Assembly: GCF_001610895.1 (NCBI RefSeq)
Contig: NZ_CP011273.1
Location: forward strand, 1,364,001-1,428,000
Direction of reading: 5' to 3'
Length of the DNA stretch: 64,000 nucleotides
DNA from: Planctomyces sp. SH-PL62
GTDB lineage: Bacteria; Planctomycetota; Planctomycetia; Isosphaerales; Isosphaeraceae
Part shown: positions 5,797 through 28,525 of the stretch, in pieces
Numbering within the stretch: the first letter of the stretch is position 1
Layout of the letters: each line of letters starts with the position of its first letter
Made by a program: the position numbers and the translations under genes
Notes under the pieces: model-generated
Seen by the model: only the letters and a program-made list of their open reading frames with translations
The model's database searches: none
What the model was told of the DNA's origin: nothing

Positions 5797-5842
5797 AGAG
5801 CGGGCGAGGGGATTTGAACCCCTGACGTCCAGCTTGGGAAGC
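5797..5842 (-). repeat. left attachment repeat: stranded 3' half of tRNA-Gly
   Basis: It matches tRNA-Gly(CCC) from the anticodon stem and loop through the T arm to the acceptor 3' strand, with one change in the T loop (position 5813). No 5' half of a tRNA follows, so it is not a functional gene. It is the second copy of the attachment site. Confidence 0.85.
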
Positions 5843-6008
5843 GCAACGGTTCCTGTCGGACCTCCGACCTCAAGACCGGCGATCCACTAGAGATACGACG
5901 AAACGGGGGGCGTGCAAGTCCAAGCATGACGGTGCATTTCCGGGCTGTAATTCCCTGGATTTCCGCGTCACGTAGAGAGCAAGAGCGTAAACCCCGTCAC
6001 CTAGTGGT

Positions 6009-7126
6009 CTACCGCAGTAGATTCTGTGGGTAGAGTCGGGAGAGTTTTCGTCGCGCGTCGGCGACGCGAAGGCCCCACACCAGCTTGACTCCGAGCCGAT
6101 TCCGTTCCGCCTCCCATGCACCGACCTCTCTTGCCGCGGACTCCTTGTCCGACAGCCGGCGGGCGAGGCATTGCCGGCTCAAGACGCTCAACTCGCACTC
6201 CGCCATGTTCAGCCAGCTGGCGTGCTTCGGCGTGAAGTGGAAATCCAGACGACGGGCCAGCCGCCACGCCTCGTCCGGCGGGTAGGTGGCGAACAGCGAC
6301 CCGAACGCGTGCGTGTTCAGGTTGTCCAGCACCACCCTGATCACCTCCGCCTCCGGATACATCTCGTCGCAGAGATGTTTCATCTGGGCGGCGAAGTCCG
6401 GGATCGTCCGCCGATCCGTCACCGTGACGCGCCGACGGCCGGCCAGGGGCTCGACGATCACGAACAGGTTGGCCGTGCCGTGCCGCGTGTACTCGTAGTC
6501 CTGCTTCGCCGGCGACCCGGGCGCCGGCGGGATCGGCTCGGCGACGTCGCCCCGCAGCTCCTTGCTCGCCTCGTCGAAGCAGACCACCGGGCGGGCCTCG
6601 TCGTACGGCTCGGCGTACAATTCCAGCACGTCCTCCATGCGGTGGATGAACTCGCCGTCTACGCCCTTGGGGAGGCACCACGACTTCTTCTGCCACGGCT
6701 TGAGGTCGCTTTTTTGAGGACCCGGAGGACGGTGTCCTCCGAGACGCTCTCGACCACCTGGAGTTCGACCAGGCGGTCGGCGATCATCCGGGCGGTCCAG
6801 ACGGCCCGGCCCTCGGGGACCGGGCTGCACGCCGTGGCGACGACGATCGCCTCGGCCTTGCCGTCGAGGACCGGCCTGGCGCCGGGGCGGGGCTTGTCGC
6901 GGAGGGCGGCCTCGAAGCCGCCGGCGGCGTACCGGCGGCGGACGTTGGCCACCGTGCCGATCGAGACGCCGACCTCGTCGGCGATCTCCTCGTCGGTGTC
7001 GCCGGCGTCGGCTCGGAGCAGGATCCGAGCTCGGTATCGCTGGCGACGGGTCAGCGAGCCCGCCTCCCACTGCTCCAGGGCGGCTCGTTCGTCATCCGTC
7101 AGCTCTACGACGTGTCGCTTCGCCAT
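6009..7126 (-). CDS. IS630-family transposase 1 (two frames, -1 frameshift)
   Basis: The first frame (7126 to about 6710) begins MAKRHVVELTDDER and holds the helix-turn-helix DNA-binding part. The second frame carries the DDE domain: Asp in VVCFDEASKEL, Asp in VVLDNLNTHAF and Glu in SWLNMAECEL. The frames join at six adenines (minus strand, 6715-6710), a typical slippery site; slipping back one base gives LKKSDLKPWQ, which continues the family sequence smoothly. Programmed -1 frameshifting is known for IS630 relatives. A GGAGGAG site precedes the ATG. The element looks intact. Confidence 0.8.
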
Positions 7127-7136
7127 GTCACTCCTC

Positions 7137-7238
7137 CTAGCAAGCCAGGATAGCGAAAAGGCTGCCAAGATTCACTGCGTTCGACCACTAGCAAGCCAGG
7201 ATAGCGAAAAGGCTGCCAAGATTCACTGCGTTCGACCA
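7137..7238. repeat. perfect 51-bp tandem duplication of an IS end
   Basis: Positions 7137-7187 and 7188-7238 are identical. Each unit begins with CTAG and ends with the terminal inverted repeat of IS1. The next bases are again CTAG, shared with the neighbouring element. Confidence 0.95.
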
Positions 7239-7239
7239 C

Positions 7240-26891: not shown

Positions 26892-27190
26892 GTGACCGAC
26901 TCGCAACAGCCCCTCACCGTCGCCCAAGCCGCCAAGTTCTATCCCGGCGGCACCCACACCGGCACGATCATCCGGCACATCACCCGGGGCGTCCGGACGC
27001 CGCAGGGCGTCGTCAAGCTCGAGGCCTCCAGGATGGGGGGGAGGTGGACGACCACCCTCGAGGCCATCGAGCGGTTCAGGGCGGCCTGTACGGCCTCCCG
27101 TGGGGGCTCGCCGCCGCCCATGGCCCGGACTGCTTCCCAGGCCAAGGCGACGGCGTTCTTGGACTCGATCGGCCTGCGATGGGACCTCAG
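26892..27190 (+). CDS. DUF1580-like protein, putative excisionase
   Basis: Residues after the start (LTVAQAAKFYPG, then GTIIRHITRGVRTPQG, VVKLEASRMGGRWTTTLEAI, ERFRAA) match the DUF1580 pattern: a winged-helix-like fold in which the GGRW-T--EAI-RF segment is conserved. Planctomycete DUF1580 genes often lie beside integrases, and a directionality-factor role is likely by position. A GTG at 26892 with GAGGAG upstream was chosen; ATGs at 26847 and 26805 would extend it. The end is uncertain: this frame has no stop until 27776, opposite the integrase gene, so the 3' limit is where family-like sequence ends. Confidence 0.5.
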
Positions 27191-28365
27191 CCGGTCGCCC
27201 TGGCGATCTCCTTCGCCAAGTCGTCCAACCGCTCGGCGTAGACCTGGGTCACATCCATTTTGGCGTGGCCCAGGACCGCCTGGGAGGCTTCGAGGCCGTA
27301 GAGCCGCCGGATCCTCGTCGCGGCCGCGTGGCGGAGTTGGAGAGGCGACCAGCGATGTCTCGACCGCCATGCCTTCAGGTCGCGACGCTGGGCTTCCGTT
27401 CGCTTCGAGGTCGGGACCGCGTCGAGCTCCGGGTGGGGGGGCGCCCGGTCGCAGGCCCGGACGATCGCCTGGCGGTAGCTCCGGCGGTCGTAGGTCTGGC
27501 TCACGTTGCGTCGTCCGGCTGACTCGCGGGGATCGAACACGAAGCCCTCCCCGGCCGCCGCGAGGAAGGGCTCCAGGACCTGGGCCGCCTTGGGACCGAT
27601 CGGGATCATCCGGGCCCGCAGGTCCTCGTGGTGGTCGGTCTTGCATCGCCCCGGCCGGTACACCCAGGGCTCGACGCTCCGGTCGATCTCAGCGGCCCGC
27701 ATGGAGAGGACCTCGCCGACTCGGCAGCCGGTCAAGAACTGGAACTCGACCATCGCCGCGACGGCGGCCGGCATGAAGGGCAGGGCGGCCCGCATGCGAT
27801 CCTCTGAGACGGGGCCGACGCCACGCGACTCGGGGGCCGTGGTCCGATTCTTCGCCAACGGCGCGAGCATCCCCAGCTCGCCGACCGTCGCGGCCGGGAC
27901 CAACTCCTGCGAGGCCGCCCACCGCCAGGCTCGGCGGATCCGGTTTACCCGGGAGTTGACGACCTCCCGGGAGAGCCCGGAGTCGACCATCACCGCACGG
28001 ACGGCCTCGAGTTTTCGAACTCCGAACTCGACCGCCGGAGTCGCCTCATAGAGCCGTCGTACCGGCCCCAGGGCGTCGGCCATGTTGCGGGCCTCCCCCG
28101 TAGGTTCCCCCGTCAGCGCCCGGTAGTACTGGATCGCATGCACCATGTAGGCAGCGATGACCTCGGCGACGCTGGCACCCGACGCGACAGGGGCGGGCCG
28201 CTTGTCGCGGGCGAGCCATTCGGCGACGAAGCGTTCGTAGGCCTGGGCGGCCTCTCGCGTTCCGTGCTTGCCGAGGTAGTGGGCGCGGCCGTCGACCTGG
28301 ACGTAGGCGCGGCCCGAGGCCTTGTGGCGGCGGAGGGATAGAATGCGGTTCACGACGCGCGGCAT
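27187..28365 (-). CDS. tyrosine-type site-specific integrase
   Basis: A 392-residue phage-type integrase. The C-terminal catalytic domain shows TGCRVGEVLSMR (first Arg), SPLQLRHAAATRIR (second Arg with His), and VLGHAKMDVTQVYAE (His and nucleophilic Tyr). The position usually His in the HxxR box is Leu here (PLQLR). The N-terminal part has an arm-binding region and a SAM-like core domain. The ATG at 28365 has GGAGG at good spacing. It lies between an 18-bp palindrome and the DUF1580-like gene, 117 bases from the tRNA-Gly gene it presumably targets, and converges with the excisionase-like gene. Confidence 0.9.
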   Translation of the reverse strand: MPRVVNRILSLRRHKASGRAYVQVDGRAHYLGKHGTREAAQAYERFVAEWLARDKRPAPVASGASVAEVIAAYMVHAIQYYRALTGEPTGEARNMADALGPVRRLYEATPAVEFGVRKLEAVRAVMVDSGLSREVVNSRVNRIRRAWRWAASQELVPAATVGELGMLAPLAKNRTTAPESRGVGPVSEDRMRAALPFMPAAVAAMVEFQFLTGCRVGEVLSMRAAEIDRSVEPWVYRPGRCKTDHHEDLRARMIPIGPKAAQVLEPFLAAAGEGFVFDPRESAGRRNVSQTYDRRSYRQAIVRACDRAPPHPELDAVPTSKRTEAQRRDLKAWRSRHRWSPLQLRHAAATRIRRLYGLEASQAVLGHAKMDVTQVYAERLDDLAKEIARATG

Positions 28366-28383
28366 GGCGGCCTCCGAGCTTAT

Positions 28384-28401
28384 CCCCGTCAATTGACGGG
28401 G
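28384..28401. promoter_or_regulatory. perfect 18-bp palindrome between integrase and tRNA-Gly
   Basis: CCCCGTCAATTGACGGGG reads the same on both strands and lies 18 bases upstream of the integrase start codon. It could be an operator for the integrase gene or an accessory binding site near the attachment site. Confidence 0.5.
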
Positions 28402-28479
28402 TTACCGCTTCGGTCTTGAGACCGCTCGCCGGGACGCCCGACGGTACGTAAATCACACGTTCGGCAGGACTTGCGTTGC

Positions 28480-28525
28480 AGAGCGGGCGAGGGGATTCGA
28501 ACCCCTGACGTCCAGCTTGGGAAGC
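28480..28525 (-). repeat. right attachment repeat within tRNA-Gly
   Basis: Forty-six bases covering the tRNA from the 5' part of the anticodon stem to two bases past the 3' end. They match 5797-5842 with one mismatch. Confidence 0.85.

What the first reader, a model, noticed from the sequence alone, without database searches (positions are those of the whole stretch)
5797..28525. 22.7-kb genomic island bounded by a duplicated tRNA-Gly 3' half
A 46-bp direct repeat with one mismatch links positions 5797-5842 and 28480-28525. The right copy belongs to an intact tRNA-Gly(CCC); the left copy is only the 3' part. A tyrosine integrase lies just inside the tRNA end. No integrating element is evident from any single gene; the repeat defines both limits.
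Basis: partly seen in the sequence, partly recalled or inferred. Interest (0 to 1): 0.75.

Follow-up and report, generated by a model that had tools for sequence, protein, structure and literature searches.

The report
tRNA island with structured integrase leader
The 22.7-kb stretch is a genomic island that inserted itself into a glycine tRNA gene, and its integrase gene sits behind a folded leader, found right after tRNA genes across the planctomycetes, that appears to hide the integrase's ribosome-binding site.

Summary
Observation confirmed. The 46-bp repeat (one mismatch), the intact tRNA-Gly(CCC) at 28481-28553(-) and the tyrosine integrase just inside it are real. The island is an ordinary kind: a tRNA-targeted integrative element. 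Other tRNA-Gly 3' fragments in the genus (45-54 nt) mostly begin at or within a few bases of the anticodon loop, the likely crossover. Three congeners carry different integrases at the same tRNA. In one, DNA like that left of 5797 directly follows the tRNA, as expected for a site lacking this element. Two backbone genes are frameshifted, and a decayed element remnant probably abuts the left copy.

Less ordinary is the 115 nt between tRNA and integrase. In distant planctomycete integrases at many different tRNAs it keeps two covarying hairpins, starting about 16 nt after the tRNA, plus a long stem pairing with the integrase's ribosome-binding site. A covariance model of the hairpins, run on 248 genomes, hit 94; of 130 hits inspected, about 90% precede such an integrase and nearly all follow a tRNA or a tRNA 3' fragment. 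Rfam 15 has no match. I read it as an RNA leader limiting integrase translation; a DNA att-arm role is not excluded. DUF1580, beside the integrase, is probably the excisionase.

The parts
28481..28553 (-). tRNA-Gly(CCC), restored target gene
   Evidence: ARAGORN; Rfam RF00005 70.9 bits
28480..28525 (-). integrase-side copy of the repeat (3' part of the tRNA)
28517..28523 (-). anticodon loop TTCCCAA, probable crossover region
   Evidence: partial tRNA-Gly copies in L115, L118, L119 start identity at or within a base of this loop; window and L116 two bases earlier; the L081 copy is longer
28366..28480 (-). structured leader between tRNA 3' end and integrase start codon
   Evidence: R1 hit 28419-28465 48.8 bits (this sequence is one of the 37 in the model)
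28446..28460 (-). hairpin SL1 (ACGT-GTGATTT-ACGT)
28428..28442 (-). hairpin SL2 (GTCGG..CCGGC)
28419..28427 (-). 5' arm of long stem P3 (GAGCGGTCT)
28384..28401 (-). hairpin SL3, perfect palindrome CCCCGTCAATTGACGGGG
   Evidence: 0 of 300 shuffles as good
28366..28375 (-). 3' arm of P3 with the Shine-Dalgarno-like GGAGG (28371-28375), next to the start codon
27187..28365 (-). tyrosine integrase, 392 aa from ATG (ORF open to 28392)
   Evidence: PF00589; family alignment; catalytic columns
26922..27089 (+). DUF1580 domain, winged helix, candidate excisionase (the stop seen in the G003 homologue is absent; ORF runs to 27776)
   Evidence: model of the G003 homologue
26152..26757 (+). HNH endonuclease remnant, frameshifted at its 5' end
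   Evidence: PF13392 E 3e-9; frames
25500..26098 (+). metallopeptidase-like ORF (HELLH), frameshifted here, open in G003
   Evidence: Pfam match below cut-off
22875..25214 (-). WD40/TPR protein (cargo)
21066..22664 (-). SBBP beta-propeller protein (cargo)
18478..20886 (-). Calx-beta protein (cargo)
14224..17422 (-). two leucine-rich-repeat proteins (cargo)
   Evidence: collinear with G002:C1:382247-385394
10811..14167 (+). PSD-domain protein and DUF1552 protein (cargo)
   Evidence: G002:C1:378679-382021 at 81%
5999..9811 (.). three IS copies with DDE_3 transposases just inside the distal end
   Evidence: Pfam; 100%, 100% and 89% copies elsewhere in the genome
5797..5842 (-). displaced tRNA-Gly 3' fragment, distal end of the island
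5743..5776 (-). probable decayed leader (SL1+SL2) of a second, older element, 22 nt beyond the displaced fragment
   Evidence: R1 16.1 bits, E 0.28 in whole window, 0.0013 in a 301-nt stretch

Best explanation
A tRNA-Gly-targeted integrative element. Shown by sequence: intact tRNA at one end, displaced 3' fragment at the other, integrase between them reading away from the tRNA. Inferred: the integrase recombined the anticodon loop of tRNA-Gly with attP; the element's tRNA 3' half restored the gene and the original half was displaced 22.7 kb to the left, next to probable remains of an older element. Inferred from comparison: in the integrated state tRNA, leader and integrase can be one transcript; the leader folds into SL1, SL2 and a long stem P3 whose 3' side holds the ribosome-binding site, so translation of integrase from tRNA-driven transcripts is restrained. 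DUF1580, a winged-helix protein beside the integrase, probably supplies excision directionality. The cargo is ordinary planctomycete genes, and the element is probably immobile or nearly so now. My estimates: island 0.95; anticodon-loop crossover 0.8; conserved structured leader 0.95; translational control 0.6; DUF1580 as excisionase 0.6.
For: Repeat, tRNA and integrase. Partial tRNA-Gly copies in congeners: three (L115, L118, L119) start identity at or within a base of TTCCCAA, two (window, L116) two bases earlier. Different integrases after the same tRNA in G001, G003, G005. Empty-site-like junction in G005. Leader: covariation 0.813 against 0.225 shuffled, 110 against 31.7 double-change cells, slid controls 0.165 or less. 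Own-RBS complementarity z 6.7; set chosen by R1, z 6.2; offset scan z 8.8 at the predicted arm and 1.4 or less at offsets -6 to -24 upstream of it. R1 in 94 of 248 genomes; 30 top loci: 27 scored with a tRNA 3' end upstream plus L335, 26 scored with a downstream integrase plus L335; next 100 hits: 69 with a complete tRNA 8-49 nt upstream (64 of them at 13-20), 89 with integrase. Folds z -2.2 to -4.9. DUF1580 20-1294 nt 3' of the integrase in 15 of the 16 integrase-paired cases tabulated from the 20 hits; Foldseek rank 1 TorI, rank 4 RdfS.
Against: RNA rather than DNA action is not proven: in the pooled set G.U against A.C mismatches are 62 to 38 (p 0.02), with no asymmetry in SL1 (9 to 11); separate sets gave p 0.06 and 0.12. 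No transcript data. The leader could also be att-arm DNA. Permutation tests do not fully remove relatedness, though z is 4.2 at the strictest filter (n 33). The DUF1580 Foldseek E-values are weak (0.35 at best) and its Z values (4.3-6.7) are in the range of common folds. A clean empty site is not available: the G005 homology is about 110 bp. The decayed leader at the left junction is only suggestive (E 0.28 over the window).
Confidence: 0.68

Rival explanations
1. The inverted repeats after the tRNA act as DNA: arm-type binding sites for integrase and excisionase inside attL/attP, and the RBS complementarity is a by-product of an outer inverted repeat.
For: The block starts a nearly fixed 15-18 nt after the tRNA 3' end, as arm sites should relative to the core; SL3 is often a perfect palindrome; SL1 shows no G.U excess; KplE1 intS shows integrase regulation through an attL that overlaps its promoter (PMC2951348).
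Against: Stem sequences change freely while pairing is kept; loop lengths vary; the pairing reaches the start codon and is specific to it; overall G.U exceeds A.C.
Confidence: 0.28
2. The left tRNA fragment belongs to an older insertion and the present integrase module arrived separately, so 5.8-28.5 kb is a composite and not one insertion.
For: A probable decayed leader lies left of the fragment; IS cluster at the distal end; cargo blocks match different loci of different congeners (G002, G005); the integrase-side 3.1 kb is shared with G003 as a mosaic.
Against: Only one long displaced fragment exists in the genome, and tandem insertion at one tRNA would itself leave this junction. No second integrase remnant was found in 1-10.9 kb.
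Confidence: 0.25
3. The repeat is an old tRNA duplication or chance match unrelated to integration.
For: None beyond the sequence divergence of the flanks.
Against: 45 of 46 bases, correct orientation, integrase at the expected end, same pattern at other tRNAs in about 100 loci.
Confidence: 0.02

Closest known systems
tRNA/tmRNA-targeted genomic islands (Islander, PMC4383910)
   Same: Intact tRNA, displaced 3' fragment in the same orientation, tyrosine integrase between; Islander lists 2083 anticodon-centred sites and 125 tandem cases.
   Different: Structured leader between tRNA and integrase; that paper's text does not mention planctomycetes.
KplE1 prophage intS / TorI (PMC2951348)
   Same: Integrase control region overlaps attL at a tRNA; TorI is Foldseek's top match to the DUF1580 model.
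   Different: KplE1 control is transcriptional autoregulation by protein binding; here the conserved feature is base pairing that reaches the ribosome-binding site.
Candidate structured RNAs of bacteria (PMC2864571), among them Rhodopirellula-1
   Same: Rhodopirellula-1 is listed as a planctomycete/proteobacterial motif, probably cis-regulatory, without an Rfam number; the STAXI motif of that paper is sometimes near integrases.
   Different: Its sequence is only in a supplement I could not read, so identity with the leader described here is open.

Membership tests
tRNA-targeted integrative genomic island | complete tRNA gene at one end | tested here: met
tRNA-targeted integrative genomic island | displaced tRNA 3' fragment, same orientation, at the other end | tested here: met
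tRNA-targeted integrative genomic island | integrase gene between the two | tested here: met
tRNA-targeted integrative genomic island | empty site in a relative | tested here: inconclusive
   G005 junction resembles it over about 110 bp; no clean empty site
tRNA-targeted integrative genomic island | excision to a circle | not testable with these tools
   needs reads or PCR
tyrosine recombinase (PF00589) | catalytic R, K, R, H, Y | tested here: met
   R215 K242 R345 H367 Y376 in all 16 aligned proteins
tyrosine recombinase (PF00589) | His at the first position of the HxxR box (not required for membership) | tested here: not met
   Leu342 here; N, H or L in the family. Substitutions at this place are known in the superfamily (own knowledge), so the Pfam assignment stands
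integrative conjugative element or prophage | relaxase/T4SS or virion genes | tested here: not met
   none among the island ORFs scanned with Pfam; short ORFs not all scanned
a family of Rfam 15 | match of the leader to a covariance model | tested here: not met
   only tRNA and chance-level hits
Rhodopirellula-1 RNA motif | published consensus sequence and structure | not testable with these tools
   consensus not in the main text
excisionase / recombination directionality factor (DUF1580) | small winged-helix DNA-binding fold | tested here: inconclusive
   AlphaFold core pLDDT near 90 shows helix-turn-helix plus wing; TorI, RdfS and Xis are among the matches, but so are MerR-type regulators, at weak scores
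excisionase / recombination directionality factor (DUF1580) | promotes excision | not testable with these tools
   needs a recombination assay

The most novel reading that the evidence does not exclude
Planctomycete tRNA-targeting elements share a structured RNA leader fixed about 16 nt behind the host tRNA, whatever the tRNA. It keeps integrase translation off while the element sits behind a tRNA promoter and is released by a signal or by the changed transcript after excision: an RNA switch on integration, of a kind not in Rfam.
Probability: 0.4. Interest if true: 0.78.

Novelty: new variant of a known kind. Interest (0 to 1): 0.6.

Why it matters
Islands in tRNA genes face the problem that the tRNA promoter could drive their integrase. 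A conserved leader that pairs with the integrase ribosome-binding site would be a direct answer, at the RNA level, in a phylum whose mobile elements are little studied. It also gives a practical handle: a 48-nt model finds the tRNA-proximal ends of these elements genome-wide, and it suggests a function, excisionase, for DUF1580, for which the open library held no paper.

Tried and rejected
Clean empty site in congeners: not found; G002 and G004 have tRNA-Gly elsewhere and the others are occupied. Second integrase remnant left of 5797: none. Rfam family for the leader: none. Intrinsic terminator reading of SL3: rejected, no long U-run follows the hairpin in most leaders. tblastx of the integrase end against relatives: too noisy to use. 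Defence cargo: PADLOC gave only a weak repeat match. Phage relatives of the integrase in the phage collection: none. First alignment of whole leaders (A3) misaligned SL1 and was replaced by anchored cores (A4).

Full report
1. Observation. The two copies of the repeat agree in 45 of 46 bases. The right one is the 3' part of a complete tRNA-Gly(CCC) at 28481-28553 on the minus strand; the left one lacks the 5' half. In the rest of the genome (6.78 Mb, a planctomycete; the genus is probably Paludisphaera, an inference from the P. soli contigs and not tested) only weaker matches exist, 91% or less over 32-63 nt, as expected of other tRNA genes. The integrase lies directly behind the tRNA and reads away from it; its ATG is 115 nt from the tRNA end.

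2. The island. From the tRNA end: integrase, a convergent DUF1580 gene, an HNH remnant and a metallopeptidase-like ORF, then WD40/TPR, SBBP, Calx-beta, two LRR proteins, a DUF1552 protein and a PSD-domain protein, and three IS copies next to the left repeat. The IS copies recur elsewhere in the genome at 100, 100 and 89%. The HNH and metallopeptidase ORFs are frameshifted here; the metallopeptidase is open in G003. No relaxase, type IV secretion or virion gene was seen among the ORFs scanned. This is an integrated, partly decayed element with ordinary planctomycete cargo.

3. Relatives. The ABC transporter right of the tRNA keeps its place beside tRNA-Gly in G001, G003 and G005, and each has a different integrase at the same position, broken by stops in G001. 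G003 shares the tRNA-proximal 3.1 kb at 80% overall, much more alike behind the integrase than in it; the integrase proteins are 60% identical, a mosaic. The block 10.8-17.4 kb is collinear with another locus of G002. No congener carries the whole order. G003, G004 and G005 carry further tRNA-Gly 3' fragments. Identity begins at or within a base of the anticodon loop TTCCCAA in three of them and two bases earlier in the window and G003 copies; one in G004 is longer. This points to an anticodon-loop crossover.

4. Left junction. The 110 bases left of 5797 resemble those directly behind the intact tRNA-Gly of G005 (score 22.0 against a shuffled mean of 7.3 and maximum of 16, z 6.3) and not those behind the other tRNA-Gly copies tested (z -0.7 to 2.0). 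This is the pattern of a site that lacks the present element. The same stretch scores 16.1 bits with the leader model described below, 22 nt beyond the fragment (E 0.28 over the window, so suggestive only). I infer that an older element of the same family lies decayed on the left.

5. The leader. Integrase relatives from named Planctomycetota genomes and viral contigs have, in 71 of 118 loci with enough upstream sequence, a complete tRNA within 400 nt upstream on the same strand, and many of the rest show a tRNA 3' end. The tRNAs differ widely. Between tRNA and start codon lies a common plan: GCCGA-SL1-ACC-SL2-GNGCGG...SL3...RBS-ATG. On 37 cores the nine pairs of SL1 and SL2 form standard pairs in 94.3% of cells against 63.3% after shuffling; 110 cells change on both sides against 31.7; the covariation score is 0.813 against 0.225, and 0.165 or less when the partner is slid. 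The cores were picked by a parse that asked for Watson-Crick pairs in these stems, which raises the percentage paired but does not create the variety of pair types. The GNGCGG arm, which that parse did not use, is complementary to the leader's own RBS region more than to that of other leaders: z 6.7, z 6.2 in a set selected only by the model, and a scan of offsets peaks at the predicted arm with z 8.8, while offsets of -6 to -24 give 1.4 or less. Eleven leaders folded singly, the window's among them, have z-scores of -2.2 to -4.9, and most put the RBS in the long stem.

6. Test by search. Model R1 (48 positions), run over 248 genomes of the class, hit 94 of them. In the 30 best loci 27 were scored with a tRNA 3' end just upstream, usually 16-17 nt, and 26 with an integrase downstream; L335 has both by eye. 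In the next 100 hits 69 have a complete tRNA, 64 of these 13-20 nt upstream, and 89 have an integrase. Some of the 37 training leaders come from genomes among these, so the sets are not wholly independent. Over the phylum 24 of 294 genomes hit at E 1e-4, 17 of them outside the class. Rfam 15 has no family for it.

7. Mechanism. An RNA leader that hides the RBS explains strand, position and covariation up to the start codon. The G.U against A.C count favours RNA only modestly (62 to 38, p 0.02; SL1 shows none), so att-arm DNA remains the main rival and both roles may be combined. DUF1580 lies 20-1294 nt behind the integrase in 15 of 16 integrase-paired cases tabulated from 20 hits; the model of the G003 homologue is a winged helix with TorI, RdfS and lambda Xis among the matches, at weak scores. 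I take it as the probable excisionase.

8. Known or new. The island is a new member of a well-known kind (Islander, PMC4383910). Control of tRNA-adjacent integrases through attL is known from KplE1 (PMC2951348), but by protein. A leader of this sort was not found in the open papers searched or in Rfam; the Rhodopirellula-1 motif of PMC2864571 might be the same and could not be checked. Hence 'new variant of a known kind'.

Noticed in passing
window 7137-7238: A 51-bp sequence stands twice, exactly and head to tail, at the meeting point of two IS copies (5999-7191 and 7238-8654).
   Followed up: partly
window 5999-9811: Three different IS630-like copies are packed side by side just inside the displaced tRNA fragment.
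   Followed up: partly
L082 17252-17840 (about 2.7 kb left of the window): Collinearity with the congeners stops at the place where four of them (G001, G003, G004, G005) have the tmRNA gene; ARAGORN finds no tmRNA there in this genome, so the left flank has been rearranged.
   Followed up: partly
G000:C1:5963132-5965473: A second element of the same family in this genome: leader behind tRNA-Ala, integrase and DUF1580.
   Followed up: partly
window 18060-18241: A dispersed repeat of about 180 bp, 76-86% alike, occurs in G001, G003 and once more in this genome; nature unknown.
   Followed up: no
L082 4576-4768: A segment of about 190 bp recurs in many places of every congener at 81-88%; probably a conserved coding N-terminus.
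   Followed up: no
window 26922-27180: The DUF1580 ORF lacks the stop codon that ends its G003 homologue and runs on antisense into the integrase gene.
   Followed up: partly
window 28384-28401: SL3 is often a perfect palindrome around GGTAG/CTACC in other leaders, with a spacer of 0 to 5 nt; why it is so symmetric is unexplained.
   Followed up: partly
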